Shown here: positions 8,022 through 44,614 of the stretch, one piece after another | Layout: each line of letters starts with the position of its first letter | Position numbering within the stretch: position 1 is the stretch's first letter | Assembly: GCA_024275575.1 (NCBI GenBank) | Contig: JAJRYV010000134.1 | Location: 62,001 to 126,000 of the forward strand | DNA from: a bacterium | GTDB lineage: Bacteria; Zhuqueibacterota; Zhuqueibacteria; Zhuqueibacterales; Geothermadaptataceae | DNA: 64,000 bases | Direction of reading: 5' to 3' | Position numbers and translations under genes: made by a program | Notes under the pieces: generated by a model | The model's database searches: none | Seen by the model: only the letters and a program-made list of their open reading frames with translations | What the model was told of the DNA's origin: nothing

Positions 8022-11000
8022 ATGCAAAAAATTGTTGTCTATGTTTTGCTTGGTATGAGTCTGGCTGCACAGAGTTTTGCCGGAACGACAGGCAAGGTTA
8101 GCGGCGTTGTCACCGATGGCGAAACCGGAGAAGCGCTGCCGGGCGCCAATATCATCATCGAAGGTTCGACGATGGGCGCAGCCTCGGATATGCAGGGGCG
8201 TTTCACCATCCTCAATATCCCGCCGGGGGTGTACGTCGTCAAAGCCTCGTTTCTGGGTTACGCCGCGCAAAGCCGCAGCGCTGTGCGGGTGCTGATCGAT
8301 CGCACCATCAGACTCAACTTCGAGTTGATTCCCCAAGCCCTGCAAACGGAAGAAATCACCATCGTGGCGGAGCAGGAAATGGTGCGGCAGGATGTTTCTT
8401 CCAGCCTCACCAATATTTCAGCGGAAGAAATGCTGGAGCTTCCGCTTAACGATTTGGCTAAAGTTATCGAATTGCAGGCGGGCATTGAAAAAGGCATGAC
8501 CATCCGCGGCAGCAGCATCGAACAGTCCGATTTTCTTATCGATGGCTTCAGCCTGCGCGATGAGCGCAATAACGAACCCATCACCACCGCTCTGCCCATG
8601 GCCGCCATTGAGGATATGGCCGTGATGTCCGGCGGTTTCAACGCCGAATACGGCCTGGTGCGTTCTGGTATTGTCAATTCGGCGATTAAGGAGGGGAAAC
8701 GCAGCAGTTACACCGGCAGTCTCAATATCAGCGCCAGCCCGCCGGGGAAAAAGCATTTCGGTCTTTCCCCTTTCGACCGCAATTCTTTCTGGCTGCGGCC
8801 CTATTTCGATGATGCCGTTGCTTTTACCGGCACTGAAAACGGCGGCTGGGATAAACATACCCGCAGGCAATATCCGCGTTTTGTCGGCTGGAACGAGATT
8901 TCCCGCCGCACGCTGGCCAATAACGATCCGACCGATGATCTGTCGCCCTCGGCAGCGCAGCGGCTTTTTGCCTGGCAGCATCGCAAGGAAGGCGCCGGTA
9001 CAAAAACGGATTATAATGTCGATTTGGGTTTCGGCGGGCCGGTGCCTTTTATCGGCAAAAAACTGGGCGGCCTGCGCTTTTTTACCGCTTTCAGAAAATT
9101 TCAGGATGAATACTTGGTGCCGCTTTCCCGCGATGCTTTTACAAACTATTCCTGGCTGATGAAACTCACCAGTTCCATCAAATCCAATATGAAGCTGAGC
9201 ATTACCAGTTTATTGGGTCAATCAGCCGGTACCTCCAGCGATCCCGAGGCCGGAGCACACAGTTTTCAATCGGTGGAAGATGTTGCCGGCGGCCTCGCCG
9301 ACGGTTATTTCCGCAATACACGTATGTTTTCCAACAGTTTTTTTAGCAACACCAATACGAACTACGGTATGTTTTCCGCCAAATTCACCCACACTTTAAA
9401 CGCCTCGTCATTTTATGAAATTAGCCTGCGCCAAACCCGCAAGAAGTACAGCGCCGGGCCGGTGGCGTTGCGCAACACTGAAGCCACGAACGAGATTTTC
9501 CCCGGCTACTTTGTCAACGAGGCCCCTTTCGGTTATGTGGACGCCTCGGTTGATGGCATCGCCGGGCTGATGATGGGCGGACACATCGGCGAAGCACGGG
9601 ATTTCAGTGAGATCGTCACCACCTCCGCCGGCAGCAAATATACCACGCAGCTCAACAGTCATAATGAAATCACCGCGGGTTTTGAACTGACACACACCAG
9701 CCTCGATCTGGAATATGGCGGTAAAAACAGCCAGTTCCCGACGCTGGTTTCGTGGAACGAGGTGAGGGAAACGCCGCTGCGGGCGTCGCTGCATCTGCAG
9801 GACAAACTGGAATTCGACGGTTTTGTCGCCAACCTCGGCATGCGCCTTGATTACAGCGATCCCAACACCCAGTGGATCGCCACCGATCCCTACAACCGCA
9901 CTTTTTTTTCTGATAAATACCGCCCGGCGGCGGAATCCGGATTTGATTTTAAAGCGGTGAAACCCAGGCTGACGTGGAGTCCGCGGGTCGGCATTGCCCA
10001 CCCCATTTCCAGTACCGCCAAGTTTTATTTTAACTATGGTCATTTCCGCCAGTTGCCCAGCGCCGAAGGCATCTATGAATTGCGCCGCACCGGGCTCAAC
10101 CAGCTCGTTTCGATCGGCGACCCGACTTTAGACCTGGAAAAAACCGTCGCCTATGAACTGGGTTACGAGCAGGAATTATTTAGCCTCTATCTCCTGCAGC
10201 TCTCGGCTTATTACAAAGATATCTCGGCTCAGCGCAGCTACGTACATTATGTCGATATCACCGAAAAAGTTAACTACTGGAAAGAAGAGAGCAACAATTA
10301 CGAAGACATTCGCGGCCTGGAGGTGACCCTGCGCAAGCGCGGCGGCCGCTGGTTTTCCGGTTTTGCCAATTACACCTACATGGTCAGCAGCAGCGGTTAT
10401 TTCGGTTTCGAGCAGCTTTTCGAAAATCCGGCGGAACAGCGGGACTTCAACGCAAAAAACCCGCAGCAATGGAAACCGGTGCCCCAGCCTTACGCTCGCG
10501 TCAATCTCGATTTGCATGTGCCGGAAAATTTCGGCCCGGAGATAGCCGGCCTGCGGCCTTTGCAGGATTGGCGCATGAATCTGCTCTACAACTGGCGCTC
10601 AGGCTGGTGGGATACGTGGAATCCCAACGACCGCGCCGGGGTGATCAACAATATCCAGTGGGCGGATTTTCACAATTTTAATGTGCGCCTTTCCAAACCA
10701 TTCAAGATGAAAAAGCTTAATTTGATTTTCTTCGCCGATATCAATAACCTGTTTAATACCAAACGTTTCAGCGGTTTTGGTTTTTACGATTTTCAGGACC
10801 GCCGCGATTATTTCGATTCACTGCACATGCCTAAAAATGTGGCTGCGGAAATCGGCAGCGTTTTCATTCCCGGCGATGACCGGCCGGGTGATTATCGCAA
10901 AACCGGCGTTGATTTCGTATCGCTCCGGCCCATCGGCAGCATCGACGTGCTCACTAACCCGGCTGACGGGCAGATTTATTACGACATGGCCACGGGAAAT

Positions 11001-11162
11001 TATATGGAATTTGTCGGCCAGAACTGGTCTGAAGTGAACGGCAGCCGCATCAAACGCATTCTCGATGATAAAGCTTATATCGATATGCCGAATATGAGTT
11101 CGTTTACCTTCCTGAATCCGCGCGATATTTTTATCGGTTTAAAGCTTTCTTTTAATTATTGA
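8022..11162 (+). CDS. TonB-dependent outer-membrane receptor with CarboxypepD_reg-like domain
   Basis: The protein has 1046 residues. A signal peptide ends near QSFAG, a carboxypeptidase-regulatory-like beta-sandwich follows (GVVTDGETGEALPGANIIIEG, about residues 26-110), then a plug domain (IRGSSIEQSDFLIDGFSLRD, GGFNAEYGLVRSGIVN) and a long beta-barrel with alternating aromatic strands ending in the terminal motif KLSFNY. The start has CGGAGG upstream. Such receptors import oligosaccharides or other ligands with TonB energy. There is no SusD-like lipoprotein beside it; a large exoprotein gene follows directly, overlapping region 11159 onward, and a PorV-like gene comes third. The gene at 37130 is a paralog in the same context. 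Confidence 0.9.
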   Translation: MQKIVVYVLLGMSLAAQSFAGTTGKVSGVVTDGETGEALPGANIIIEGSTMGAASDMQGRFTILNIPPGVYVVKASFLGYAAQSRSAVRVLIDRTIRLNFELIPQALQTEEITIVAEQEMVRQDVSSSLTNISAEEMLELPLNDLAKVIELQAGIEKGMTIRGSSIEQSDFLIDGFSLRDERNNEPITTALPMAAIEDMAVMSGGFNAEYGLVRSGIVNSAIKEGKRSSYTGSLNISASPPGKKHFGLSPFDRNSFWLRPYFDDAVAFTGTENGGWDKHTRRQYPRFVGWNEISRRTLANNDPTDDLSPSAAQRLFAWQHRKEGAGTKTDYNVDLGFGGPVPFIGKKLGGLRFFTAFRKFQDEYLVPLSRDAFTNYSWLMKLTSSIKSNMKLSITSLLGQSAGTSSDPEAGAHSFQSVEDVAGGLADGYFRNTRMFSNSFFSNTNTNYGMFSAKFTHTLNASSFYEISLRQTRKKYSAGPVALRNTEATNEIFPGYFVNEAPFGYVDASVDGIAGLMMGGHIGEARDFSEIVTTSAGSKYTTQLNSHNEITAGFELTHTSLDLEYGGKNSQFPTLVSWNEVRETPLRASLHLQDKLEFDGFVANLGMRLDYSDPNTQWIATDPYNRTFFSDKYRPAAESGFDFKAVKPRLTWSPRVGIAHPISSTAKFYFNYGHFRQLPSAEGIYELRRTGLNQLVSIGDPTLDLEKTVAYELGYEQELFSLYLLQLSAYYKDISAQRSYVHYVDITEKVNYWKEESNNYEDIRGLEVTLRKRGGRWFSGFANYTYMVSSSGYFGFEQLFENPAEQRDFNAKNPQQWKPVPQPYARVNLDLHVPENFGPEIAGLRPLQDWRMNLLYNWRSGWWDTWNPNDRAGVINNIQWADFHNFNVRLSKPFKMKKLNLIFFADINNLFNTKRFSGFGFYDFQDRRDYFDSLHMPKNVAAEIGSVFIPGDDRPGDYRKTGVDFVSLRPIGSIDVLTNPADGQIYYDMATGNYMEFVGQNWSEVNGSRIKRILDDKAYIDMPNMSSFTFLNPRDIFIGLKLSFNY

Positions 11163-11200
11163 TGACAGCAAATATGGGCGCCAAAAAAAGGATTGAAATT

Positions 11201-13321
11201 ATGATAAAATACAGAAACAGAACATGGCCGTATTGTGTGCTTCCGGCGATGTTGGCACTGCTCCTGTTGATCGGGCGAGCCGGTGCGCAGGAAGTGAAAT
11301 GGATTCAAGTCGGGCCGCTGCATAACTGGTATATGGACGCCGGCAGCGAACCTGAAGAAGGGCGTACCGGCAACGCCGGCGGCAACGAACAGCAGGACGG
11401 CCTGCGCTGGCCTGCGCTTTACCGCTGGCAGGATACCATGGTCGGCAAGTCGCTGTGGATCGGCACGGCCGATTACACCGACCCTGTAAGCAACGACCAT
11501 TATGACCACAAAGTCGTGGCCGTGGGCCCGCGCTCTCAGGCAATCGATACGGAGTTTACCCTGATGCCGGTGGAATTTAAGCTGATCGGCAGGTTTGATC
11601 ATCCACTGGTTTTGGTGGACGGGCTGGTGGCTTCCGATCTTGCATTTACCGACCGGCTGGATGAGGTGGATGAAAACCTGCCCACCGACCGCATGATTAT
11701 CAACAAAGTCAACAGCGCCATCGGTATTACCATGACCCGCAGGATTTACTACAATTCACAGCAGAATCACAATAATTATTTCATTTACGATTACGTCTTC
11801 AAAAATACCGGTATCATCAACCGCAAAGGCACGGTGGCGCAGCAGACGTTGAAAGACGTCGTATTTTTCTTTCAGTATCGCTATGGCATCGGCCACGAAG
11901 CCTGGCAGGAAGGCGCTTACCCCGACGAAGTGAACTGGGGGCGCAATGTGGTCAATGATGCACGCAATGAAAGCCCGATAGATGTCGGGCCGCCGCCAAT
12001 CTGGGGTGAAGACGCACCGCCGCGCTGCCTGTTTTCCTGGCATGGTCGCCATTCCGGCCTGCCTTTCGATAATATCGGCGGGCCGTTTATGCAAACAGAC
12101 GGGCACCTGTCGGCGCAACAGTTTGTCGGCATTATCACACTGCATGCCGATAAGTCTGGCAGCGATCACAGCGATGATCTTTTTCAGCCGGTCACAACCC
12201 AGTTCCAGGGCGCCGACGATGGAACGATCCAGTACGGCACCGGCACGGCCGCACAGTTCAACCGTACGGAGATGACCTCTCGTTATCTGGCGATGACTTC
12301 CGGCCATCCTCCTGCTGGTATGCGCCATGCCGACCTGGTGGGCGATAACCCCGCTAACGAATTCGGCACCGACGCCGGTGGTTACGTGCAGGCTCAGGGT
12401 TTCGGACCCTACACCTTGGCACCCGGCGACAGCATTCATCTCGTGCTCGCTGAAGGGGTCGCCGGGTTGAGCCGCGAACAGTGTTACGCGATCGGCGCCC
12501 AATGGCTGGCGGGCGTCAAAGGCGCTGCCAATAACTTCACTATGCCCGACGGCTCGACGACTTCCAACCCCGATGAATACAAAAATGCCTGGGTGTTCAC
12601 CGGCCGCGATTCGCTGTTTCAAACTTTCGAACGCGCGCAAAGCATGGTTTCCACCGGCATGAATGTGCCGCAGCCGCCGCCACCGCCCAAAGTTTTTGAA
12701 GTCAATTCCGGTGGTGACCGCATCGCCCTGAACTGGGCGAACAACGCCGAAGAATGGGACAATTTCAGAGGCTACAAAGTCTACCGCGCCGTAGGCAAGC
12801 GCGACAGCACCCATTGGCAGGAAATCTTCCGCAGTGAAAAACCGAACATCGTCAATGAATACGACGATACCAGCGCCATCCGCGGGCTCGATTATTACTA
12901 CTATATCGTGTCTTTTGATGACGGCTCCACCAACACGGTCGCTCCGGGAACGCCGTTGGAGAGCAGCTTGTTTTACACCCTGACCAGCGAACCGGCTTCG
13001 CTGCGCCGCCCGGCAAAGGAAAATCTCAACGACATCGTCATCGTGCCCAATCCTTTCGATATCCGTGCAAAGAAACTGCAATTTGGTGAAAATGCGCCGG
13101 ACCGGCTGGCCTTTTTTGGTTTGCCGCCGGTATGCACCATCAAAATTTTCACCGAGCGCGGGGATTTGGTGGAAACCATCGAACACACGGACGGTACCGG
13201 CGATGAATTCTGGAATTCCATTACCTCTTCGCGGCAGGTGGTGGTCAGCGGCGTTTATATCGCCCACATCAGCTCGCCGGACGGGCGTTCGGCGGTGAGA
13301 AAATTTGTGGTGATTCGGTAG
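11201..13321 (+). CDS. Large exoprotein with FN3-like domain and atypical C-terminal sorting-like domain
   Basis: The product is 706 residues from ATG 11201, which begins a clean signal peptide (MIKYRNRTWPYCVL, ending near GRAGAQ) and has AAGGA upstream; an in-frame ATG at 11159 overlaps the receptor stop and is less likely. Residues about 30-480 are an unrecognised beta-rich region (GKSLWIGTADYTD, NHNNYFIYDYVFKNTG, FGPYTLAPGDSIHLVLAEGV). A fibronectin-III-like domain occupies about 495-590 (FRGYKVYRAV, YYYYIVSFDDGS). The last ~95 residues, starting IVPNPFD and ending VSGVYIAHISS...KFVVIR, resemble a divergent sorting domain. The homolog at 40164 sits in the same order between receptor and PorV-like gene, suggesting the three work together at the outer surface. 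Confidence 0.8.
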   Translation: MIKYRNRTWPYCVLPAMLALLLLIGRAGAQEVKWIQVGPLHNWYMDAGSEPEEGRTGNAGGNEQQDGLRWPALYRWQDTMVGKSLWIGTADYTDPVSNDHYDHKVVAVGPRSQAIDTEFTLMPVEFKLIGRFDHPLVLVDGLVASDLAFTDRLDEVDENLPTDRMIINKVNSAIGITMTRRIYYNSQQNHNNYFIYDYVFKNTGIINRKGTVAQQTLKDVVFFFQYRYGIGHEAWQEGAYPDEVNWGRNVVNDARNESPIDVGPPPIWGEDAPPRCLFSWHGRHSGLPFDNIGGPFMQTDGHLSAQQFVGIITLHADKSGSDHSDDLFQPVTTQFQGADDGTIQYGTGTAAQFNRTEMTSRYLAMTSGHPPAGMRHADLVGDNPANEFGTDAGGYVQAQGFGPYTLAPGDSIHLVLAEGVAGLSREQCYAIGAQWLAGVKGAANNFTMPDGSTTSNPDEYKNAWVFTGRDSLFQTFERAQSMVSTGMNVPQPPPPPKVFEVNSGGDRIALNWANNAEEWDNFRGYKVYRAVGKRDSTHWQEIFRSEKPNIVNEYDDTSAIRGLDYYYYIVSFDDGSTNTVAPGTPLESSLFYTLTSEPASLRRPAKENLNDIVIVPNPFDIRAKKLQFGENAPDRLAFFGLPPVCTIKIFTERGDLVETIEHTDGTGDEFWNSITSSRQVVVSGVYIAHISSPDGRSAVRKFVVIR

Positions 13322-13365
13322 GCGTTCAGGTTGCAGGCCAATTATAAAAACAGGAGAAATCTTCA

Positions 13366-14358
13366 ATGATAAAAAAAATATTTTATCTGGGCTTCGTATT
13401 CGTGCTCATGCAGAGTTTGGCAGCACAGGCGCAGGAGAACCAAAAACTGGCGCAGACCGGTTTGCAATTCCTGAGTGTTGAACCGGACGCCCGCGCCGCA
13501 GCCCTGGCCCGCTCCGTGACAACGGCCGGTTTGCGCTCCAACTCTCTCTTTTTTAACCCCTCCGGTCTAACTGCAATCGACAGCCGGTTCGATTTCGCTT
13601 TTAACCGCTTTGAGTGGATTGCCGGCATCACCCACAATGCTTTTTCGTTGGCCTTCCGACCGTGGCAGGGTAATTACGGTGTTTTCGGCCTGAGCCTGGT
13701 TTCGGTGGATTACGGCGCCATCGTCGGCACACAGCGGGCTGATAATGAGCAGGGTTATATTAAAACCGGCGATTTCAGTCCCTCGGCATTTGCCCTTGGT
13801 TTGGGTTATGCCCGCGCTATTTCCGATAAATTCTCGGTTGGCGGGCAAATCAGGCTGGTGCGGCAAGACCTGGGGCAGAGCCGTATTCCGGTCACCGATT
13901 CCACCACCACAAATGTTGGCAATGAGATTTCACCGGTTTCGGTGGATTTCGGCACGGTGTACAAAACCGGGCTCAAAAGCCTGAAATTCGGCATGTACGT
14001 GCGCAATTTTTAGCAGGAGATCGAATTTGCCAGTGAAAGTTTTCAATTGCCGCTGGAATTTGTTTTCGGCATTTCTTTCGATGCTTTCGACCTGTGCGGC
14101 GGCTCCGAGACCCAGAAGCTGAACCTCTCTTTCGATGCAATGCATTACCGCAGCCATCCGGAAACGATCAACATCGGCGTCGAATACGTGCTGTTGGATC
14201 TGCTGGCGTTGCGCAGTGGTTACCGTTCCAATACCGAGGAAAATGCTTTTTCTTTCGGATTCGGTTTAAAACGATACGGTGTTGCGGTGGATTATGCCTA
14301 CACCCCGTTTGGCCTTTTTGATAACGTGCAGCGGTTCACCATTCGTTTGGCGCTGTGA
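13366..14358 (+). pseudogene. PorV/UPF0164-like outer-membrane barrel, interrupted by in-frame TAG
   Basis: The reading frame runs from ATG 13366 (CAGGAG upstream) through a signal peptide ending near AQAQE and the family's beta-barrel start (FLSVEPDARAAALARS, LFFNPSGL, VDYGAIVGTQR), reaches TAG at 14011-14013, then continues in the same frame with no further stop to TGA at 14356-14358. The downstream part matches the end of the intact homolog at 42269: NF-stop-QEIEFASESFQLPL here against NFSRDMVYWTEKFQMPM there, so the stop replaces a serine-like position. A single TCG to TAG change would explain it. PorV-like proteins shuttle T9SS cargo to the surface sortase. It is a recent pseudogene, a base-call error or a recoded stop; the sequence alone cannot separate these. 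Confidence 0.8.
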
Positions 14359-14390
14359 TTTTTTTGACGGGATATAAAAGGAGCTTTGAA

Positions 14391-15602
14391 ATGAAAAACA
14401 AGATACTGTGGCTGCTTATGTTGCTCATCACCGTTTTCGGTTGCAACGCTGATCAGCCTGCCGCTGTTTTCGACCCGGACAATACCGGCAGCCCGACGCC
14501 GGTGGTTCGGGCAATTGAACCCGCTCGGGCCGCTTTTGCCGGCGTGCAGCAGTTGCTAATCAAAGGGGAAAATTTTTCGCCGGACCGGCAGCGCAATATC
14601 GTCTCGGTCAATGGTGAAGTCACCGCAACCCTTTCAGCGAGTGGAAACGAGATGACGGTGGTCGCGCCGTTGGTCATCGGCGATTCATTGACCATCCGCG
14701 TCGATGTGCGCGGCGCTTACGAACCTGGCCTGTTCGCGCCTTACGATCTGAAACCGCCGTTCAACACTTTTTATAAATTTTCAGCGGAGGAAACGGTGCT
14801 GGATATCGCCTTCGACAACGCTGGAAATCTATATGCGCTGGTGGTCGCCGGCAGCGATCGCAGCATCGTGCGTTTTTCTCCCGACGGTGCGACTCGCGAG
14901 ACTTATGCCCGGGTGACCGTGCCGGTTGGCCCGCCCTCGCTGAAAATGGCGCCCGGCGGCGCACTGATGCTCGCCCGCAAGAACAACCGCAAGCTCTACC
15001 GCATTCCCCCGGGCGGCGGTTCGACGGAATTGTTTGTGCAACTGCCGAAGAAGGTGATCAACTTCGATTTTGATTCGGACGGCGCGCTCTACGCTGGCGG
15101 CAAAGGCCATAAACTTTACAAAGTGTTACCCGACGCCTCGTTTCAGGAAGTTGCAGATTATGGGGACATCGTCATCGTCGCTGTGCGGGTGGTTGCTGGT
15201 TATGTTTATCTCGCCGGATTTGTCTCCGAGCAAACACCGTCGGGTGTCGTGCTGCAGCAGAATATCTGGCGCCACGCCATCACCGTTGACGGCGTCGGCG
15301 AACGATTGCCGGTGCTCGACTGGACAGCCGAAATCGGCGACGCGGTCATCACCTCTCTGACCCTCTCGGCTGATGGCGAGCTGTTCATCGGCAACGACGG
15401 CGATGATCCTATTTTTGTACTGCGTCGGAATGGCGCTGTGGCGCCTTTTTTAGCCGGTCTGTTGCCCGGCCCGGTAATCATGTGCAGTTGGGGAGACGGT
15501 GATTTCCTTTATTATATCAATCACCTCATTTCTCCGCCGGAAACGAAAATTGTGCAACTCTATGTCGGCAAAGGCGGGGCCCCCTATGCCGGACGAAATT
15601 AA
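14391..15602 (+). CDS. TIG/IPT-domain lipoprotein with beta-propeller
   Basis: The product is 403 residues from ATG 14391, selected for the AAGGAG about 8 bases upstream and the lipoprotein signal (MKNKILWLLMLLITVFGC, lipid-anchored Cys18). Residues about 35-110 match an IPT/TIG immunoglobulin-like fold (IEPARAAFAGVQQLLIKGENF). Residues about 120-400 contain repeated short strands such as IAFDNAGNLYALV, FDFDSDGALYAGG and LTLSADGELFIGND, typical of NHL/SMP-30-type propellers. Similar lipoproteins sit next to TonB receptors in polysaccharide-utilisation loci and bind glycans on the cell surface; that role is inferred from position. Confidence 0.8.
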   Translation: MKNKILWLLMLLITVFGCNADQPAAVFDPDNTGSPTPVVRAIEPARAAFAGVQQLLIKGENFSPDRQRNIVSVNGEVTATLSASGNEMTVVAPLVIGDSLTIRVDVRGAYEPGLFAPYDLKPPFNTFYKFSAEETVLDIAFDNAGNLYALVVAGSDRSIVRFSPDGATRETYARVTVPVGPPSLKMAPGGALMLARKNNRKLYRIPPGGGSTELFVQLPKKVINFDFDSDGALYAGGKGHKLYKVLPDASFQEVADYGDIVIVAVRVVAGYVYLAGFVSEQTPSGVVLQQNIWRHAITVDGVGERLPVLDWTAEIGDAVITSLTLSADGELFIGNDGDDPIFVLRRNGAVAPFLAGLLPGPVIMCSWGDGDFLYYINHLISPPETKIVQLYVGKGGAPYAGRN

Positions 15603-15611
15603 AAAATACCG

Positions 15612-15642
15612 GCCTTGCAAAGATTTGCCATCTGTGCAAGGC
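15612..15642 (+). terminator. Hairpin after the TIG lipoprotein gene
   Basis: GCCTTGCA at 15612-15619 pairs with TGCAAGGC at 15635-15642 across a 15-base loop. There is no tight T-tract, so termination efficiency is uncertain; it may instead be an RNA processing or stability structure between the two surface-protein genes. Confidence 0.45.
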
Positions 15643-15734: not shown

Positions 15735-16709
15735 ATGAAGGTTTTGTACAGTATTCTCATCGTATTTTTTACAGTAACCGCTTTGTGTGCTCAGGTTCAG
15801 CTCGTGGAACCGTTCGACGGCGGCATCACTGAATGGCAGGATGAATGGTCATCCGGTGACGGCCATGCGAACATGAGTTATGACTCCACTCTGGCAGGCC
15901 GTGAAGGCGCGGCAGCGCTTAAAATCGATTGGCTGCTGGATGTTGTGGATTATGGTGGCGGCATCAGTTTTGCCCACAATCTTGAACCCGGGGACAATTG
16001 GGATTTCTCCAACCACAATTACCTGGTGATCGATTATTACGTTGAAACGCCCGGCACCTCCGAGCACGCCGACAGCATCGCATTCTCGCTGGTGCTGCGC
16101 GACCATCACGACCAGGCAGCTTACGACGCCAATCCCGGCGCCGCTGATCTTTGGCGCTATGACGATTTCACCGTTTTTTACAACGAAGTCGGCTGGCACC
16201 AAATTGTTGTGCCGCTGGAAGAAAGCGATGACGCCACCACCGGGCTCGTACACCAGGGTGATGATTACAACGGCCAGTTCGATCCCGAATTCATCAAAGG
16301 TTTCTATATCGAATGGGGAACATGGAGCACATCACTGGTGGATACTACAGGAACGATCGCTGATTCCGGAATCGTCTATTTCGACAACATGCGTCTCACC
16401 ACCGAAATACCAACTGGCGTGGCTGACCGTGCGGCGTCGGTTATCGAAACTTACCGTCTGCAGCAGAATTATCCCAACCCGTTCAACCCGCAGACGACGA
16501 TTGCTTACAGTATTCCTGCGACCGGCCATGTTGTGTTGGGCGTCTACAATATGATCGGCCAAAAAGTGGCCACGCTGGTGGACGGCGTGCAAAATGAAGG
16601 GGCGCATACAGTGACCTTCGACGCGCAGCATTTGACCACGGGCGCCTATTTTTATCAGGTTCAGTTCAACGGACAGGTGCAGACCCGCAAAATGACACTG
16701 CTCAAATAA
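15735..16709 (+). CDS. Secreted carbohydrate-binding-like protein with T9SS sorting domain
   Basis: The product is 324 residues from ATG 15735, which has TTTGGAGG upstream and starts the signal peptide (ending near ALCAQ). Residues about 22-230 form one jelly-roll-like domain (LVEPFDGGITEWQDEW, YLVIDYYVETPG, FKGFYIEWGTW-type edge strands, IVYFDNMRLT) resembling the complex/CBM11-like sandwich domains found on secreted glycanases. It is followed directly by a sorting domain from NYPNPFNP at about 248 to KMTLLK. No enzymatic domain is attached. It occupies the same place in this module as the unrelated-looking single-domain secreted protein at 43454 does in the second module. Confidence 0.8.
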   Translation: MKVLYSILIVFFTVTALCAQVQLVEPFDGGITEWQDEWSSGDGHANMSYDSTLAGREGAAALKIDWLLDVVDYGGGISFAHNLEPGDNWDFSNHNYLVIDYYVETPGTSEHADSIAFSLVLRDHHDQAAYDANPGAADLWRYDDFTVFYNEVGWHQIVVPLEESDDATTGLVHQGDDYNGQFDPEFIKGFYIEWGTWSTSLVDTTGTIADSGIVYFDNMRLTTEIPTGVADRAASVIETYRLQQNYPNPFNPQTTIAYSIPATGHVVLGVYNMIGQKVATLVDGVQNEGAHTVTFDAQHLTTGAYFYQVQFNGQVQTRKMTLLK

Positions 16710-37129: not shown

Positions 37130-40120
37130 ATGAAACGTTTGTTATGGATTTTAGTCGCGGTTGTGCTGGCCAATGTGCCGGTGCAAACCTTTGGAGGAAT
37201 TACCGGGAAGATTAGGGGAACTGTTCACGATGCAAATACTGGAGAGCCGCTGCCTGGTGCGAATGTCGTCATTGACGGCACTTCCTACGGGGCGGCAGCA
37301 GGAGGGGATGGCAGTTTTATCATACTCTATTTACCACCGGGAAAATATACTGTTCGCGCTTCGATGATCGGCTATAAAACATCAGTTAAACAAGATGTTA
37401 AAGTTGAAGCCGACCGCAGTACGCACATCGAGTTTTCCATGGTCGAGTCGGTCATCGAAGGCCAGGAGGTCGTCATCATTGCGCCGGTGGAACTGGTCAA
37501 ATTAGATGTTTCGGCTTCGGAAACACGGGTAACCCAGGCCGATATGGCCAACACACCGTTTTCCAACCGTATCGAGGACGCCATCAGCTACCAAGCCGGA
37601 GTCCAGGGAAACCTGATCGAAGGCGAGCTGCAGATTCGGGCCGGCGACGCCTCGGAAGCGGCTATTTTAGTAGATGGCTACTCCATGGTCGACCCCAATT
37701 TTAACCGCTCAATTGTCACGATTGCCCCGAGCAGTGTCGAGGAAATCAATGTTATTCGCGGTGGGTATAATGCGGAATATGGTAAAGCGCGTTCCGGCAT
37801 TATCAATATCGTGAGCAAAACGCCGTCGCAGGAATTTCGTGTGGATCTGGATTATCAGTTGAACCCCGCCCGCCAGCGCCATGCCGGCAGTAGCCGCTAC
37901 AGCGCCAATAATTTTTGGCCGCAGGAATTGTACGGCAGCGAGGCCGCCTTGAACGAATACTATGTTATTCGGACCGAAGGCATAACGCCTGATACCATCC
38001 GTTGGGAAGGCTGGAATGCTTATGCTGAAAGATTGCTGACGGATTCCAACCCGGATAACGATCTGACCGCAGAAGAAGCGAGGGAATTGTGGAACTGGCG
38101 CCACCGTCCAATCAAATATGATGACGAAACAGGGCATAATATTGCTTTAACATTGAGCGATGGTTTTATCATCACCCCCGACTGGAAGCTGAGTGTTATG
38201 TCGACATTCTCCTGGGAAAAGCGGCCCTATACTTATCCGCAGCCCATCGACGCCTATCAATCGAAAACGATTTTGTATAAAATTATCAGTGATTTTGGCA
38301 ACAAGCACAAATTTACCCTGTTTGGTACACACAATTTGACCAGCACGGTGACCAGAAATTATGCCACGAGCAACTGGGATGCTTATGATGAATTATCCTA
38401 CAGCGGCGGTTCAAGCGAGATGTTTTATGTTGGCCGCAAACCATTGGTTGATCGCAAGGCGACCATGCTGGGTTTAAAATACCAGTATCTGGCTTCGGAA
38501 ACGCGGTTTATCGAAGCGGATGTCAGTTATTATGGTTCCAGATGGGATGTGCGCCATTCGAAGAAAGCCAAAGAAGAAGACGGACGTTATTTCCACGGCA
38601 GGCTCTATCTCGACCCGCAGTCGGGCTGGATTCCTAAAAATATCTGGTCGGAAGAAAAACAGGACTGGGAGATCAACCCGCTGGCAAGAGCGGATGATGG
38701 AACCAATTACAACATGTTTGGCGGCGGCGTCACCTGGGATGATTCCTATGGCAATAACCTGAATATAAAGTTATCGATGACCGATCAGTTCCATCCGGCA
38801 CATGAGCTAAAAGCCGGATTGGAGTTTACTTCGAATAAAATTGTGCAGGATCGCAAACATTGGCATGATGATGATCCGACAAAAGAGTTTTTAACAAATT
38901 ATGATGTCAAACCGCTAGAGATCGCCGCCTATATTCAGGATAAAATTGAGTTTCGTGGCATGGTGGCCAATATTGGTTTGCGTTTTGACCGCTATGATCC
39001 CAACGGTATTTTTTATGATGTTCACCGCATTTTGGAATATGCGACAAACCAGGAAGCTTATGATGCGGTGAAAGCGGATAGCTTTTTTACCAGAAAAGCC
39101 AACGCAAGCTGGCATTTCAGCCCGAGAGTCGGCGTCTCATTTCCCATAACCGAAGACAGCAAAGTCTATTTTAACTATGGCCATTTTGTACAAATGACAC
39201 AAAACGAGGCTTTGTATCCGACAACCCTGGATGGAGAAAAATACAGGGTTCAATGGATGGGTAATCCTCATCTCAATTTCCAGAAAAGTTACAATTTTGA
39301 GCTTGGTTATGATCAGAATGTCTTTGATCAATTTCAGGTTCACATCGGGGCATTTTATAAAGATTACAGCGATGTGGAAAGCGGCATGGTTTACGCCCAT
39401 TCCAGCCAGGCGCTCATCACAGAATGGGCGGACCAGCGGGAATACCGTGAAATTCGCGGACTGGATATTGAAATCCGTAAAAAATCCGGCCGTTTCTTTA
39501 CAGGTTTTTTCAATTTCAATATCACCAGCAAAAGTGTCAGCGATCTCTCGGTGCCCGGTATCAGCCAGATTCCGGTGATCACCGATGATCCTGCTCTGGG
39601 CGTGAACGGTGAGTTGAAAGGTGTGCCGCGGCCGGAAATCGTCGAGCTCGTACCTTACGGCCGCGGTATTTTCGTCTTTGCCACGCCGCGAAAATGGGGA
39701 CCGAGGCTTTGGAACTACCCCATTCTGCATCGCACTTCGGCCAGCTTTTCACTTAATTATACCGGGCCGCAGTATGTTCGGCATCCGGACAGAACTTTCC
39801 GCGAACAGCATCCCGATGTGCAGTTCCATACTTTACCTATTATCTCAAGCAATTTGCGCCTTGGACGCGATTTTGATGTCGGCAATGGCTCCAGCCTGAA
39901 ATTCTATATGGATATCAGTAACTTATGGACATCCAAATACCGTTATCCTCCGGGCGGCCAGGCTGGAAGGGATTATTATAACGACCTTTATGAAAACGGT
40001 AAAAAAGATCAGGTGGGTACGGATGAGGTTTCCGATAAACGGATTTTGCGCACCCACAGAGAAGTCAATTATGCTGGAGCATTCCGTTCTTTTATCATCG
40101 GCATGCGTTTTACTAAATAA
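37130..40120 (+). CDS. TonB-dependent outer-membrane receptor, second module
   Basis: The product is 996 residues from ATG 37130 (GAGGA upstream); an in-frame TTG lies two codons before. The signal peptide ends near VQTFGG, then the CarboxypepD_reg-like domain (GTVHDANTGEPLPGANVVIDG), plug (LQIRAGDASEAAILVDGYSM, GGYNAEYGKARSGIINIVSK) and barrel, finishing in a short terminal strand (FRSFIIGMRFTK). It is a paralog of the receptor at 8022 with the same gene order downstream. It should import a ligand supplied by the neighbouring exoproteins, which cannot be identified from sequence. Confidence 0.9.
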   Translation: MKRLLWILVAVVLANVPVQTFGGITGKIRGTVHDANTGEPLPGANVVIDGTSYGAAAGGDGSFIILYLPPGKYTVRASMIGYKTSVKQDVKVEADRSTHIEFSMVESVIEGQEVVIIAPVELVKLDVSASETRVTQADMANTPFSNRIEDAISYQAGVQGNLIEGELQIRAGDASEAAILVDGYSMVDPNFNRSIVTIAPSSVEEINVIRGGYNAEYGKARSGIINIVSKTPSQEFRVDLDYQLNPARQRHAGSSRYSANNFWPQELYGSEAALNEYYVIRTEGITPDTIRWEGWNAYAERLLTDSNPDNDLTAEEARELWNWRHRPIKYDDETGHNIALTLSDGFIITPDWKLSVMSTFSWEKRPYTYPQPIDAYQSKTILYKIISDFGNKHKFTLFGTHNLTSTVTRNYATSNWDAYDELSYSGGSSEMFYVGRKPLVDRKATMLGLKYQYLASETRFIEADVSYYGSRWDVRHSKKAKEEDGRYFHGRLYLDPQSGWIPKNIWSEEKQDWEINPLARADDGTNYNMFGGGVTWDDSYGNNLNIKLSMTDQFHPAHELKAGLEFTSNKIVQDRKHWHDDDPTKEFLTNYDVKPLEIAAYIQDKIEFRGMVANIGLRFDRYDPNGIFYDVHRILEYATNQEAYDAVKADSFFTRKANASWHFSPRVGVSFPITEDSKVYFNYGHFVQMTQNEALYPTTLDGEKYRVQWMGNPHLNFQKSYNFELGYDQNVFDQFQVHIGAFYKDYSDVESGMVYAHSSQALITEWADQREYREIRGLDIEIRKKSGRFFTGFFNFNITSKSVSDLSVPGISQIPVITDDPALGVNGELKGVPRPEIVELVPYGRGIFVFATPRKWGPRLWNYPILHRTSASFSLNYTGPQYVRHPDRTFREQHPDVQFHTLPIISSNLRLGRDFDVGNGSSLKFYMDISNLWTSKYRYPPGGQAGRDYYNDLYENGKKDQVGTDEVSDKRILRTHREVNYAGAFRSFIIGMRFTK

Positions 40121-40163
40121 TTTTGCTGATCAACATCACCCCGAACAAGTAACCGGAGGGATT

Positions 40164-42248
40164 ATGTTTTCAACAAGGCATTACCCTTTATATAAAAATA
40201 GATTTAAAATTTTTATATTCCTTTTCTGCCTGATTTTTTCGCAGAATTTATCAGGCCAGGAAATCAAAAGCCATGAAATCGGCCTGCTGTGGGACACCAT
40301 GTTTGCCACCGGCACGATTCCCGGATATGCACCTATCGATGACCGCATGACCTACCCCGGTGGTGATTTCTGGCTGCAAACCGGAAAAAATCTGGTCGGC
40401 CGCGGCACCTGGATCGGCGTGACTGACTGGACTGACCATACCGGTGTATTTCATCCGTCCTATGTTTAAGAAGGCGGCTTTGCCAATGACGCCGCCAATG
40501 GGTTTACTTTTCCAATTTCAAATAAAAAGAAAATTCGTAATCGATTGCCTAATGTTATGGTCAATGGCACGGCCGACGTCCGTGTGCTCGATACCCGCGA
40601 AGGAAGCTCGAAATCTTTCAGTCTGAAAGCAGATGAAATGATCGAAACCAAATGGGCCACCAATACAGGTATTTCCGTGCGCCGGCGCAGCTATGCTTTT
40701 GCCAACCAGAACCATAACAGCTATATTATCCTAGAATACCGCTTTACCAACGACGGCAATACGGATATCGATACCAGATCAAAAGAACTTGCCGGGCAGG
40801 ATTTAAAAGGGGTTTATTTTGGTTTTCAATACTACCTGCTTCCCGGTGGTGACCGCGGTCATCAACAAGTGAATGAACATGATGACTGGGCGGAATACTA
40901 CGGCAACCAGCCTGGCGATAGCTTGCGCGGCCTGCTGTTTTTGTATGATGGTGATTCAAAAATAAAAACCTATGATGATGTCGGCGATCCTGATCAGGCT
41001 ACCGGCGAATTTTTATCGCCGCAGTATCCCGGCATTGGTGTCCTACATGCCGATACCGGCTGGGATAATCGGGATGATGACCGCAGTCAGCCATCTACAG
41101 TGGATATCAAACCTCAGGTTCGTTTTAAAACCTATACAAAAGGCAGCACTGAAAATGAAATGTACACTGAAATGAGTTCCGGTATACAATCCCGCGGAAC
41201 CGTTGGTGTCTCAGCAAATCCTTACGACACAGATGTGCGGATTCCGGTGGCTTTGCTTTCTTTTGGTCCCTATGATTTACCGCCCGGCAAAACTATTAAT
41301 ATCGTTCTTTATGAAGCCGTTGGTGCGATCAATAAATCACTGGCCATCAGCGCTGGACGTGAATGGATGGAAGGTACCCTTGCTTTTGCCGGCAAAACCG
41401 GTGATGAAGCCAAGAATGCCCTGATCGCAACAGGCCGGGATTCGTTATTTATGCATGCTTCCCGCGCTGAATATGCCTGGGAAATCGGCCTGAAAAACAT
41501 TCCCACACCGCCGCCTTCGCCAAATCTTTTCATGAATTCCGGTCCGGGGCGCATCGAACTCATGTGGCTGACCGGCGATGATCCGGAAAATCCCCATCCG
41601 CGCGATGCCGATTTTGCCGGCTACCGGGTTTACCGCTCCAATCGGGCAAATGACAACCTCTATCAAATGGTCTGGCAATGCGGCGGCAATACCGGCATTG
41701 AAGTGACCAACGAATATTTTGACTATGATGTCGAACGCGGCAAAAGCTACTATTACTACGTCACCGCTTACGATGATGGCTCCGATAATACGACGGGTAT
41801 TTTCCCCGGCCAGTCGCTGGAATCAAGCCCTTTTTATAACCGGAATTATCAGAATGGCGCCAAAGCTGCCGTGCCACCGGCTTCAAATATGGATTCAGTG
41901 CTCGTTGTACCCAACCCTTATCATTTGCAGGGATTGGCTTTTGGCGGCACATTTGAAGAAGATTATCTTGAAACACCGCGCCCGGAAGATCAAATTTCGT
42001 TCGTCGGGTTACCGGCTAAAGCGATCATTCGGATATTTACCGTGCACGGTAATCTTGTTGAAACAATTCATCACCCTAATCCGGAGAACCCGCGATCGAT
42101 TCCTGACTCGGCGGATGAGGCCTGGTTCCAGGTTACCCAGAGTTATCAGAACATCAAATCAGGTGTTTATTTCTTTTATGTGGAAGGTTGGGACCGTGAC
42201 GGCAAAGCCCTGGGTACAACCACCGGCAAATTTGTGATAATTCGCTAA
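40164..42248 (+). pseudogene. Large exoprotein of the second module, interrupted by in-frame TAA
   Basis: The start at ATG 40164 has CCGGAGGG upstream and gives a signal peptide ending near NLSGQ. The frame meets TAA at 40467-40469 (FHPSYV-stop-EGGFANDAANG) and continues in the same frame without another stop to TAA 42246-42248. Both halves align with the intact gene at 11201: GRGTWIGVTDWTD, NHNSYIILEYRFTN, FGPYDLPPGKTINIVLYEAV, an FN3-like domain (FAGYRVYRSNRANDN) and the C-terminal domain from VVPNPYHLQG to KFVIIR. A single substitution (for example CAA or GAA to TAA) would explain it. It may be inactivated, misread, or translated from an internal start. Confidence 0.8.
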
Positions 42249-42268
42249 GCGAGGATGAGGAGACAAAA

Positions 42269-43303
42269 ATGAAACATAAAACAGGTTTGATTTGTGTGCT
42301 GATTTTCGCTGTTCTGTCCCTTGATGCCGGCTCAGCCTCAGCACAAAAGAAAAAAGTCGCCCAGAGCGGTATGACTTACCTCGGTATCAGCTTGAGTGCG
42401 CGCCAAAGCGGTATGGGAAACGCCAGCGTTGCTTCGGTTAACGGCGCCCAGGGGCTTTTCTACAACCCGGCCGCCATCACCCAGTTGCAAAAGAACAGCC
42501 TGATCATCAATCAGGTGAACTGGCTTGTGGATACTCAGATTTATGGCCTGGGGGCCATCGTTCCGCTCAATCAGTGGGGCGCTATCGGTCTCGATATCGT
42601 ATACATGGATTACGGCACCATTATCGGCACCCAACGGGTTGACAAAAGTGTGGATGACCGAGGCTACATTACTACGGGGGATATCGGGGTGCAAGATTAT
42701 GCCCTCGGGCTCACCTACGCTTATAGTGTGAGCGATCGTTTCTCATTTGGTCTCAAACTCAAATTTGCACACGAATCTCTCGGAAACGCCGATTATGCGG
42801 TTGCGGTGATCGATGAAGAAAGTGGTGAATTTGAATACAGCAATAAGGAATGGAAACTGAACCAGTGGGGATTTGACTTTGGTGGCTATTACGATACCGG
42901 TTACCGCAGCCTGGTTTTTGCCGTCGCTTTCCAGAATTTTTCCCGCGATATGGTTTACTGGACGGAAAAATTTCAAATGCCGATGATATTGCGAATGGGA
43001 TTGGCTGCTGATATGAACCAGTTTTTTAATCTCGGGCTGAGCGACCTGCAGCTCAATGCTTCTGTCGATGCCATGCATCCTATCGATTATACCGAGCAGG
43101 TCAACGTTGGCGGTGAGATCGTTTATAAAAATCGTTTTGCCATTCGCTCCGGCTATCAATTCAATCAGGATACGGAAAACCTGAGCTTTGGATTTGGCGT
43201 CAATTTCAGATACCAGGGCACCGAAGCCTTCTTTGATTATGCTTTTACCCAGGCACAATACTTTGAAGATATCAATCGTTTTAGTCTGAGCTTTTCGTTT
43301 TAA
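42269..43303 (+). CDS. PorV/UPF0164-like outer-membrane barrel protein
   Basis: The protein has 344 residues; AGGAGA precedes the start. The signal peptide ends near GSASAQ, followed by GMTYLGISLSARQSGMGNASVASVNGAQGLFYNPAAI, the family hallmark, then alternating barrel strands (MDYGTIIGTQRVD, YALGLTYAYSVSDRFSFGLKL) to a terminal SLSFSF. T9SS PorV and PorV-like proteins bind the sorting domain of secreted cargo and pass it to the surface sortase. Following the receptor and exoprotein genes, it may serve this module. It is the intact counterpart of the interrupted gene at 13366. Confidence 0.82.
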   Translation: MKHKTGLICVLIFAVLSLDAGSASAQKKKVAQSGMTYLGISLSARQSGMGNASVASVNGAQGLFYNPAAITQLQKNSLIINQVNWLVDTQIYGLGAIVPLNQWGAIGLDIVYMDYGTIIGTQRVDKSVDDRGYITTGDIGVQDYALGLTYAYSVSDRFSFGLKLKFAHESLGNADYAVAVIDEESGEFEYSNKEWKLNQWGFDFGGYYDTGYRSLVFAVAFQNFSRDMVYWTEKFQMPMILRMGLAADMNQFFNLGLSDLQLNASVDAMHPIDYTEQVNVGGEIVYKNRFAIRSGYQFNQDTENLSFGFGVNFRYQGTEAFFDYAFTQAQYFEDINRFSLSFSF

Positions 43304-43453
43304 TTTAGTAAAAAAACATTCTTGTTCAGCCGAATTGTTCAATTTGCCTCCGGCGAGATCAAAAAAAGAGCTGATTTCACCGGACGAAGTAGCATCAGTA
43401 GCAAAACAATCCGGGCTGAACAGCACCTCAAACCCTATCACCAGGAGGATCGT

Positions 43454-44614
43454 ATGAAAAATGTTACAAAATGGAGCATAATGGCTCTCGTCTTGTGCCT
43501 GTTCCTTGCTGCAGGTTTATCCGCGCAAACGCCGACAGCCGATTATCTGTATTGGGAAGATAATTTTAATGATACGGCGGAAGATTCAATCCTTCACAAA
43601 AATGTCGGCTGGTTTTATTATGGCCCCAATGATGGCCTGGTCGGTCAGGTTGTGAAACAGGTAAATGATGAAGCTTATATCCTGCAGGGAAATTATGCGA
43701 ACTTTGCCGGTGCCGGCCTCATTCAGACGAACGGCGTTCCATTTCTTAATGAAGACGACGAAACTGCAACTCATGCTGCTTTGGTTGAAAACAATTACAG
43801 CCATCCCAATCAGGTTATCCAGTGCCGTTTGAATATTGCAAAAATGCGCGCTGAATCGTGGTTCCTGCTGGCAACACGTATGGTGCAAACAGACTCCTCC
43901 GAAACTTTTCCCGATTCTGATCCTACGGAAGGTGCTGCATATTTTCTGCATCTTAATCCGATAACAAATCTCATTCAGATTGCCAAATATGATACAGCCG
44001 AATTCAACCTTTTAAATCCGGCGACTTTTCAGGATATCGCTCAGAGAACTGACATCGATCTCGAACTGAATGTTTACTACTGGATCAAGTTTTATCTCAA
44101 TGAAGCTGACCTTAAAGTGAAAATCTGGGAAGGCGACGCTACGGATGAGCCGGATGAATGGCTGCTTGAAGGAACCGATCCCGAACCGCGGGTTACCGGC
44201 AAATATACCATGTTTGCAATGATGGGAACACCGCCCGCTACCGATGATGACAAAGATATTTTCTATGTCGACGACATCACCGTCAGCGGTTTTGTTGAAC
44301 TCACAGCCGTTCGTGCTAATGAAGACGTCATCCCGGCCGAATTTGCTCTGGGCAACAACTATCCCAATCCGTTCAATCCGGAAACCACCATCAATTTTTC
44401 TCTCAATAAAGCCGAAGCAGTTACTTTACGCATTTATAACGCTACCGGCCAACTGGTTCGTACTCTCGTTAACGAGCGGATGCAGGCCGGTGAGTGGAAA
44501 ATCAATTTCAACGGTCTGGATAGTTATGGCCGCAGCCTGAGCAGTGGTGTATATTTTTATCAACTGCAAAGCGCTACGCAGCAAATCACCAAAAAAATGG
44601 TTCTGCTCAAATAA
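43454..44614 (+). CDS. Secreted protein with T9SS sorting domain
   Basis: The product is 386 residues from ATG 43454, the first ATG after CAGGAGG and the start of a signal peptide ending near GLSAQ. Residues about 30-285 appear to be a single beta-sandwich (YLYWEDNFNDTAEDSI, VIQCRLNIAKMRAESWFLLATRM, NVYYWIKFYLNEADLKVKIWEG, FYVDDITVSGF) of the concanavalin-A/LamG-like kind, with no catalytic residues I can name. The sorting domain runs from NYPNPFNPETTINFS at about 303 to KKMVLLK. It closes the second receptor module, in the place of the CBM-like protein at 15735. Confidence 0.8.
   Translation: MKNVTKWSIMALVLCLFLAAGLSAQTPTADYLYWEDNFNDTAEDSILHKNVGWFYYGPNDGLVGQVVKQVNDEAYILQGNYANFAGAGLIQTNGVPFLNEDDETATHAALVENNYSHPNQVIQCRLNIAKMRAESWFLLATRMVQTDSSETFPDSDPTEGAAYFLHLNPITNLIQIAKYDTAEFNLLNPATFQDIAQRTDIDLELNVYYWIKFYLNEADLKVKIWEGDATDEPDEWLLEGTDPEPRVTGKYTMFAMMGTPPATDDDKDIFYVDDITVSGFVELTAVRANEDVIPAEFALGNNYPNPFNPETTINFSLNKAEAVTLRIYNATGQLVRTLVNERMQAGEWKINFNGLDSYGRSLSSGVYFYQLQSATQQITKKMVLLK

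What the first reader, a model, noticed from the sequence alone, without database searches (positions are those of the whole stretch)
8022..44614. Duplicated TonB receptor / exoprotein / PorV cassette with complementary broken genes
Two modules (8022-16709 and 37130-44614) share the order receptor, large FN3-like exoprotein, PorV/UPF0164-like barrel, secreted sorting-domain protein. No SusD is present. The exoproteins share blocks throughout and end in an atypical sorting-like domain (VPNPF/VPNPY to KFVVIR/KFVIIR). This looks like an alternative to SusC-SusD in which a T9SS-type exoprotein, placed by a dedicated PorV-like protein, is the receptor's partner. In module 1 the PorV gene has an in-frame stop, in module 2 the exoprotein does, so only together do they give one intact set. 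The functional idea is inference; the synteny and lesions are direct.
Basis: partly seen in the sequence, partly recalled or inferred. Interest (0 to 1): 0.72.

Follow-up and report, generated by a model that had tools for sequence, protein, structure and literature searches.

The report
TonB receptor–exoprotein–PorV surface cassette
Bacteria of several little-studied phyla carry many copies of a three-gene set (an outer-membrane transporter, a secreted surface protein and a dedicated anchoring barrel) that may be an alternative to the SusC-SusD nutrient-uptake system of gut Bacteroidota; the two broken genes seen in this window look incidental.

Summary
The gene order is real and far more general than one genome. 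A TonB-dependent receptor (T), an exoprotein with a PorZ-like type IX sorting domain (E) and a PorV-family barrel (V) lie side by side for 8 of 8 strong sorting-domain hits in this genome (7 as T-E-V, 1 as T-V-E), 28 of 28 further copies in two Latescibacteria chromosomes, 20 of 20 loci from 20 more genomes of that phylum, but only 8 of 11 in a Calditrichia genome. In relatives, 92 of 97 assessable exoproteins have a receptor directly upstream, against 0 of 81 type A sorting proteins. Twenty triads in one chromosome diverged together (r about 0.9). The genome has SprA, PorU and a separate canonical PorV, and no match to SusD_RagB. Best reading: the exoprotein is delivered by the T9SS, held by its own PorV-type barrel, and acts as surface partner of the receptor in uptake, perhaps of glycans (inferred). 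The 'complementary broken genes' idea fails: the modules are two old subfamilies (about 30% identical), a third, intact set lies on contig C40, and sequence on both sides of each stop is still conserved, so the stops are recent, polymorphic or artefacts.

The parts
8022..11162 (+). Module 1 TonB-dependent receptor (CarboxypepD_reg-like domain, plug, barrel)
   Evidence: Pfam PF13715, PF13620, PF07715; AF2 model (mean pLDDT 55) matches TonB-dependent transporters PfeA, Cir, SusC
11201..13321 (+). Module 1 exoprotein (EXO1), signal peptide by eye, FN3-like domain, PorZ-like C-terminal sorting domain; intact
   Evidence: relatives in 76 of 82 genomes of the phylum, own included
12665..12940 (+). 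FN3-like domain of EXO1 (approximate)
   Evidence: AF2/Foldseek: FN3 tandem matches, best E 6e-7
12983..13318 (+). Sorting-like C-terminal domain of EXO1 (VPNPF to KFVVIR), called CTD-X here
   Evidence: NF052228 PorZ E 2.7e-7, TIGR04183 20.0 bits against a cut-off of 23
13366..14358 (+). Module 1 PorV-family barrel gene, interrupted by an in-frame stop
   Evidence: NF033709 on both sides of the stop, 117 and 56 bits; 183 bits over the whole, 1 TAG
14011..14013 (+). In-frame TAG in PorV1
14391..15602 (+). TIG/NHL surface lipoprotein, fourth gene of this subfamily's cassette
   Evidence: TIG PF01833; the same family follows PorV at 44 of 70 assessable sites
15735..16709 (+). Type A T9SS sorting-domain protein
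   Evidence: PF18962 37 bits; CBM_11 only at E 0.039, below cut-off
5718..7836 (+). MFS transporter (5718-6953) and ROK family protein (6988-7836) just upstream of module 1
   Evidence: PF07690, PF00480
37130..40120 (+). Module 2 TonB-dependent receptor
   Evidence: PF13715, PF07715, PF00593; 78% identical to the same-genus copy in L180
40164..42248 (+). Module 2 exoprotein (EXO2), interrupted by an in-frame stop after codon 101
   Evidence: 33% identical to EXO1; 86% identical to an intact same-genus copy in L180
40467..40469 (+). In-frame TAA in EXO2
41841..42245 (+). CTD-X of EXO2 (VPNPY to KFVIIR)
42269..43303 (+). Module 2 PorV-family barrel, intact
   Evidence: NF033709 170 bits, cut-off 90
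43454..44614 (+). Type A T9SS sorting-domain protein
   Evidence: PF18962, TIGR04183
44962..48849 (+). BNR-repeat (sialidase-like) protein (44962-46137) and glycoside hydrolase family 2 protein (46261-48849) downstream of module 2
   Evidence: PF13088, PF00703, PF18368

Best explanation
Each cassette encodes one outer-membrane uptake unit. (1) The receptor is a plugged TonB-dependent transporter (shown by family and predicted fold). (2) The exoprotein crosses the inner membrane by its signal peptide and the outer membrane by the type IX translocon SprA, recognised through a C-terminal domain of the PorZ type (homology shown, transport inferred). (3) Its neighbour, a PorV-family barrel distinct from the genome's canonical PorV, collects that domain and keeps it, as PorQ keeps PorZ and SprF keeps SprB, so the exoprotein stays on the surface beside its receptor (inferred from homology, pairing and co-divergence). 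(4) There the exoprotein's body captures ligand and/or gates the receptor, the role that the lipoprotein SusD plays for SusC (inferred). Carbohydrate or sulfated-glycan breakdown products are the likeliest cargo (weak, from neighbours). The stops in this window are recent lesions, strain polymorphism or assembly errors and have no part in how it works.
For: Order: own genome, 8 of 8 CTD-X proteins over 70 bits have a receptor and a PorV gene beside them (7 T-E-V, 1 T-V-E); 80 loci from 64 genomes hold 103 exoproteins, receptor directly upstream in 92 of 97 assessable, PorV downstream in 76 of 85 assessable, against 0 of 81 and 7 of 75 for type A sorting proteins; named loci L027-L038, receptor 13 of 13 and PorV 10 of 11 assessable; Latescibacteria chromosomes G085 19 of 19 and G087 9 of 9 further CTD-X genes; one locus from each of 20 more genomes, 20 of 20. 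Co-divergence of 20 triads inside one chromosome: T-E r 0.90, E-V 0.89, T-V 0.89, Mantel P 0.0002 each. Sorting domain: 13 of 13 match PorZ's model, 12 of 13 the type A model, at E up to 1. T9SS: SprA 945 bits, PorU 840 bits, canonical PorV 263 bits on C15 against 59-88 bits for four cassette PorVs of the same genome, cut-off 250; SprA in 12 of 12 other cassette genomes. Cassette PorVs cluster: 4 label changes against 15.9 shuffled. By a crude pattern, exoproteins lack a lipobox (2 of 116 have one), TIG/NHL proteins have one (37 of 52). No PF07980 here. Precedents, read in passages: PMC10202324, PMC8545088, PMC12618676, PMC9143113.
Against: No direct evidence of contact, secretion or transport. 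The exoprotein and receptor models are poor (mean pLDDT 54 and 55) and the body (about residues 30-480) has no recognised family. Co-divergence of linked genes also follows from duplication as a block, and partial correlations do not tell which part follows which. Not a strict replacement of SusD: 30 of 82 genomes of the phylum and 4 of 6 named ones have SusD_RagB hits. In the Calditrichia genome G082, 3 of 11 assessable further CTD-X genes (L227, L230, L233) lack an adjacent receptor, and L234, cut at the contig end upstream, has no PorV beside it. 9 of 85 exoproteins lack a PorV downstream and 5 of 97 a receptor. The strict distance rule, measured from the matched stretch and not from the gene start, misses the own-genome receptors of L017, L020 and L021 (and the PorV of L020); their adjacency rests on the gene layout. 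Cassette PorVs fall in three groups whose mutual branching is unresolved.
Confidence: 0.55

Rival explanations
1. Co-regulated but separate: the exoprotein is a T9SS-secreted hydrolase or binding protein for the same substrate, anchored by its own barrel, and does not touch the receptor.
For: Modules lie beside glycan genes; FN3 domains are common in secreted enzymes (recalled); PorV genes also follow some sorting proteins that have no receptor beside them (7 of 75 assessable type A proteins).
Against: The receptor is beside the gene almost without exception even when the exoprotein body is unlike EXO1; no enzyme family matched EXO1 or EXO2; receptor and exoprotein body co-diverge as tightly as exoprotein and PorV.
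Confidence: 0.27
2. The receptor is not a nutrient importer for the exoprotein's ligand but part of assembly or signalling for the surface protein, for example a TonB-powered step in its export or display.
For: Receptor and exoprotein occur as near-invariable pairs; TonB-dependent barrels can do more than import (recalled, no call).
Against: The SprA translocon is present and could export the protein; some exoproteins stand in tandem behind a single receptor (L124, L132); transporter, ROK and hydrolase neighbours fit import.
Confidence: 0.1
3. One reading: the two broken modules together supply one working set.
For: The stops exist and hit different genes of the set.
Against: An intact close set on C40 and five more distant triads; modules are about 30% identical and of different subfamilies, so parts may not be exchangeable; constraint continues on both sides of the EXO2 stop (dN/dS about 0.10 and 0.04 against L180, the second with dS near saturation), so the stop is recent or not real.
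Confidence: 0.02
4. Readthrough or recoding of the stop codons yields full-length proteins in this organism.
For: Sequence beyond both stops stays open and conserved.
Against: The stops are two different codons; 26 of 27 PorV-family matches and 8 of 9 matches to EXO1 in this genome have none, so no general recoding.
Confidence: 0.05

Closest known systems
SusC-SusD / RagA-RagB nutrient importers of Bacteroidota
   Same: TonB-dependent barrel with N-terminal carboxypeptidase-like domain, encoded next to a large surface partner, many paralogous pairs per genome, sugar-utilisation neighbours, often a further surface lipoprotein (the SusCD side is recalled)
   Different: The partner is not SusD-like, mostly has no lipobox and ends in a T9SS-type sorting domain; a PorV-family barrel is a regular third gene; the receptors reach only 61-73 bits on the SusC model (cut-off 368)
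T9SS type B substrates with their own PorP/SprF shuttle (SprB-SprF, Fjoh_3952-3951, PG1035-PorP)
   Same: Sorting-domain protein paired with a dedicated outer-membrane barrel, often encoded directly downstream; PG1035 keeps its domain and is anchored by PorP (PMC12618676, PMC9143113, passages)
   Different: Here the sorting domain is PorZ/type A-like, the barrel is of the PorV family, and a TonB receptor belongs to the set
PorZ-PorQ and PorU-PorV of the T9SS attachment complex
   Same: Uncleaved Ig-like C-terminal domain held by a PorV/PorQ-family barrel (PMC10202324, PMC8545088, passages); the domain here matches PorZ best
   Different: PorZ has two beta-propellers and serves the secretion machine itself; the exoproteins have an unrelated body and a receptor beside them
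BamG-BamH of the Bacteroidota BAM complex
   Same: A FadL-type barrel that binds a surface protein through its extracellular loops (PMC12578637, passage)
   Different: Part of outer-membrane protein assembly; its authors think a PorV-like role unlikely

Membership tests
SusC-SusD importer | TonB-dependent receptor of the SusC/RagA subfamily (TIGR04056) | tested here: not met
   61 and 73 bits, N-terminal domains only, cut-off 368
SusC-SusD importer | Adjacent SusD/RagB lipoprotein | tested here: not met
   No PF07980 match in the genome (other SusD-like families not searched); exoproteins carry a lipobox in 2 of 116 by a crude pattern
SusC-SusD importer | Partner caps the receptor and imports glycans or peptides | not testable with these tools
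   No complex modelling or assay available
TonB-dependent transporter | Plug domain and TonB-dependent receptor barrel | tested here: met
   PF07715 in both, PF00593 in module 2; predicted fold of receptor 1 matches PfeA, Cir, SusC. Barrel strands were not counted
T9SS cargo, type A (TIGR04183/PF18962) | Sorting domain over the curated cut-off | tested here: inconclusive
   12 of 13 CTD-X match TIGR04183 at E up to 1, best 1.1e-6; EXO1 20.0 bits against cut-off 23; 15.2 bits with the whole protein; no PF18962 hit in EXO1 or EXO2
T9SS cargo, type B (TIGR04131) | Type B sorting domain | tested here: not met
   1 of 13 at E 0.11
T9SS cargo, type C (ChiA type) | Type C sorting domain | not tested
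   Named in PMC10202324; no type C model was compared directly
T9SS cargo in general | SprA translocon and PorU in the same genome | tested here: met
   SprA, PorU; motor and ring genes were not searched
T9SS cargo in general | Secretion depends on the T9SS | not testable with these tools
   needs a mutant
PorV shuttle (NF033710 equivalog) | Score over 250 bits | tested here: not met
   PorV2 62, C40 88, C96 82, C83 59 bits; C15, outside the cassettes, reaches 263
PorV/PorQ family (NF033709) | Score over 90 bits | tested here: met
   PorV2 170 bits, PorV1 183 bits over both halves

The most novel reading that the evidence does not exclude
A third architecture of TonB-dependent uptake, beside lone receptors and SusCD: a receptor whose surface partner is exported by the type IX system and permanently held by its own PorV-type barrel, repeated up to about 20 times per genome in Calditrichota, KSB1, Latescibacterota and relatives, and serving as their main outer-membrane route for complex organic matter.
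Probability: 0.42. Interest if true: 0.88.

Novelty: new variant of a known kind. Interest (0 to 1): 0.72.

Why it matters
One genome paper on Latescibacteria found extensive polymer-degrading capacity, assigned monomer uptake to non-specific porins and its TonB receptors to vitamin B12 and iron (PMC4454575, passages). This cassette would supply a dedicated outer-membrane route instead. It also shows T9SS-type sorting domains with dedicated PorV-family barrels outside Bacteroidota: a 2023 review restricts such domains to Bacteroidota (PMC10202324, passages), though another review's abstract already places the T9SS in the Fibrobacteres-Bacteroidetes-Chlorobi superphylum (PMC11205867, listing only). 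And it gives a natural test of the first review's suggestion that cognate PorV-like barrels protect sorting domains from cleavage.

Tried and rejected
Complementary broken modules: rejected. General stop-codon recoding: rejected. Membership in SusC-SusD: tested, not met. Type B sorting: not met. A sequence search of solved structures with the exoprotein profile gave FN3 proteins, an endo-pectate lyase and PG93, which is PorZ (recalled), all with E of 0.03 or more; the receptor alone gave none. The structure model was too uncertain for the exoprotein body; the 50 Foldseek rows shown (of 840) are mostly FN3 tandems. Partial correlations do not clearly separate 'sorting domain follows PorV' from 'body follows receptor' (0.40/0.30 and 0.47/0.47 in G085; 0.38/0.23 and 0.57/0.27 in G087). 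Literature: five searches on PorV or the T9SS with receptors, phyla and sorting domains, two on SusD (68, 90), one on UPF0164 (69): judged by titles and starts of abstracts, the rows listed hold no description of the triad. Listings were capped (20 of 115, 20 of 176, 12 of 16), and the library lacks most subscription papers and all preprints.

Rows dropped or not sampled before counts; 75 genomes besides the own one have the exoprotein; I took loci from 64 of them, out of a capped list; exoproteins at contig ends (6 for the receptor, 18 for PorV) were set aside; the 5 without a receptor are 2 second copies of tandems (L124, L132), 1 partial second copy at a contig end (L136), 1 split copy (L184) and 1 distant relative (L192); 12 of the 13 further CTD-X genes of G082 were fetched; the further CTD-X genes of G083, G084 and G086 were not; 20 of the 60 genomes, picked from a capped list; of 119 flanking proteins listed (all from G085) went into the tally; three PorVs labelled 'other' inside the cassette group (L120, L122, L171) lie on contigs that end at the exoprotein, so a receptor could not be seen.


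Full report
What is there. The window is G000:C116:62001-126000 of a 4.96 Mb, 144-contig genome. Module 2 holds a receptor, an exoprotein (EXO2) with one TAA, an intact PorV-family gene and a type A sorting protein. Gaps between receptor, exoprotein and PorV are 20 to 44 bases, as in an operon (from the coordinates, starts chosen by eye).

The modules are not a recent duplication. Identity is 33% (exoproteins), 28% (receptors) and 30% (PorVs). In a quick tree of 56 PorV proteins they fall in different starred groups, each with its own relatives across the phylum. The genome has a third close set on C40 (49% identical exoprotein) with receptor, PorV and TIG/NHL protein and no stops, and five more distant sets on C23, C96, C25, C78 and C83 whose exoproteins share mainly the last 110 residues or so. 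So the statement that only the two modules together make one intact set is wrong for this genome.

The stops. EXO2 is 86% identical to an intact copy in a same-genus genome (L180). dN/dS is about 0.10 before and 0.04 after the stop (dS 0.96 and 2.3, the second near saturation); the intact PorV and receptor of the same module give about 0.06 and 0.07. PorV1 is about as similar to five relatives after the stop as before it (50-53% and 50-58%); there dS is saturated or nearly so, so only identity can be compared. I saw no further stop or frameshift in either gene. Of 27 PorV-family matches in the genome only PorV1 has a stop. These are recent mutations, strain variants or assembly errors; reads were not available.

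How general the order is. The exoprotein family is found in 76 of 82 genomes of the phylum, own included. I took 80 loci (the best listed hit from each of 64 genomes and 16 more, own genome left out). They hold 103 exoproteins: receptor directly upstream in 92, absent in 5, contig end in 6; PorV downstream in 76, absent in 9, contig end in 18. For 84 type A sorting proteins in the fetched loci: receptor upstream in 0 of 81 assessable, PorV downstream in 7 of 75. Named relatives (12 loci) are labelled Calditrichota or Calditrichia (2), KSB1 (2), Latescibacteria or Latescibacterota (7) and Gemmatimonadota (1); in them a receptor is upstream in 13 of 13 and PorV downstream in 10 of 11 assessable exoproteins. 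A model of the terminal domain alone (CTD-X) finds further proteins whose bodies differ more: 20 in one Latescibacteria chromosome and 10 in another. Of the other 19 and 9, 28 of 28 sit between a receptor and a PorV gene on one strand. In the Calditrichia genome G082 8 of 11 assessable do. CTD-X occurs in 51 of 60 genomes of the Latescibacteria genome's phylum. One locus from each of 20 of these, picked from the list of domain hits before any neighbour was seen, gives 20 of 20; in two the receptor is cut by the contig end (L244, and L251 with only a 17-bit match) and in one it lies in two overlapping frames (L255). The domain model holds no information on neighbours, and these last two sets of loci had no part in building the receptor and PorV models.

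In the own genome the strict distance rule, measured from the matched stretch, does not count the receptors of L017, L020 and L021 or the PorV of L020; the gene layout shows them next to the exoprotein gene, in L020 in the order T-V-E. A ninth, weaker CTD-X hit (C62, 56 bits, in a 159-residue frame) has neither.

Co-divergence. Distances between the 20 triads of one chromosome correlate at 0.90 (receptor-exoprotein), 0.89 (exoprotein-PorV) and 0.89 (receptor-PorV), Mantel P 0.0002 each; the second chromosome (10 triads) gives 0.89, 0.83 and 0.86. Triads therefore duplicated and diverged largely as units. This fits a complex but also simple linkage.

What the parts are. The receptors have a carboxypeptidase-like domain and a plug; receptor 1 has a predicted fold like TonB-dependent transporters; neither is of the SusC subfamily. 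The exoproteins have a signal peptide by pattern, mostly no lipobox (2 of 116; crude pattern), a body without any family match (EXO1 and EXO2), an FN3-like domain and CTD-X. All 13 CTD-X tested match PorZ in NCBIfam at E up to 1 (best 3.6e-8; EXO1 aligns with PorZ's C-terminus), 12 match the type A model, 9 PorU, 4 FlgD, and 1 type B at E 0.11. PorZ and PorU are T9SS proteins whose domain is not cleaved and stays bound to PorQ and PorV; a review suggests that cognate PorV-like barrels may protect the domain from cleavage (PMC10202324, passages; also PMC8545088, passages). The genome has SprA, PorU and one canonical PorV on C15 (263 bits, cut-off 250) among the own PorVs tested on that model; four cassette PorVs reach 59-88 bits. 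In the PorV tree, rows from cassettes need 4 label changes against 15.9 for shuffled labels, 0 of 500 as low; they form a 34-row group spanning phyla (three rows in it are labelled 'other' only because their contigs end), a 4-row and a 2-row group, whose mutual branching is unresolved. SprA is present in 12 of 12 other genomes tested.

Role. Module 1 follows an MFS transporter and a ROK family protein; module 2 precedes a BNR (sialidase-like) protein and a family 2 glycoside hydrolase. Near two other triads of this genome are family 2 and 9 glycoside hydrolases, an ABC permease, a LacI regulator and PPIC rotamases. In the Latescibacteria chromosome, of 74 scanned flanking proteins 9 match DUF6785 and 7 DUF6784, 6 TPR models, 5 a small outer-membrane barrel model, 3 sulfatases and 3 Gfo/Idh/MocA oxidoreductases. 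This suggests sugar or sulfated-glycan use, without proof, and no control set of other flanks was scanned. A TIG/NHL protein follows PorV at 44 of 70 assessable sites and usually has a lipobox (37 of 52), a likely extra surface binder. The genome and its two same-genus relatives have no PF07980 match; 30 of 82 genomes of the phylum do, so the two systems can coexist.

Explanation. I take the cassette for a receptor with a T9SS-delivered surface partner that a dedicated PorV-type barrel holds in place. Shown: families, order, generality, PorVs distinct from the canonical one, SprA and PorU, co-divergence. Inferred: export by the T9SS, retention by the barrel, contact with the receptor, uptake and substrate. 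The nearest described logic is the type B substrate with its own SprF/PorP barrel (PMC12618676, PMC9143113, passages), here with a PorV-family barrel, a PorZ-like domain and a receptor added. Literature searches listed no description of the triad; that covers an open-access library and capped listings only.

Noticed in passing
window 18632-21259, minus strand: A run of short frames on one strand, the last ending in a type A sorting domain, looks like a decayed secreted protein (FG-GAP-like by eye) with several lesions.
   Followed up: no
L195-L213 (Latescibacteria chromosome of L035): DUF6785/DUF6784 proteins recur beside the triads (9 of 74 flanking proteins scanned), several right after the PorV gene; they may be an inner-membrane partner of the uptake system.
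   Followed up: partly
for example L202:2042-2767, L201:1998-2813, L209:2087-2839: A small gene of about 240 aa stands directly before the receptor in many Latescibacteria triads; 5 of 74 flanking proteins match an outer-membrane barrel model (PF13505). Perhaps a fourth member.
   Followed up: partly
L124, L132 (G061:C14, G059:C18): Tandem exoproteins behind a single receptor (T-E-E-V), followed by another cassette on the same contig.
   Followed up: no
G000:C15 (L022:4080-5147 and 5243-8338): Canonical PorV gene beside a protein like the M6-type inactivated metalloprotease (580 bits, cut-off 600) with a type A sorting domain.
   Followed up: partly
window 57956-60802, minus strand: Alpha-amylase-like protein with a T9SS sorting domain, a further sign of glycan use.
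   Followed up: no
L184 (G034:C273): Another exoprotein with one in-frame TAA, in a different genus of the same phylum.
   Followed up: no
G000:C62:23755-24045 (L024): Lone CTD-X fragment in a 159-residue frame without receptor or PorV beside it, probably a remnant.
   Followed up: no
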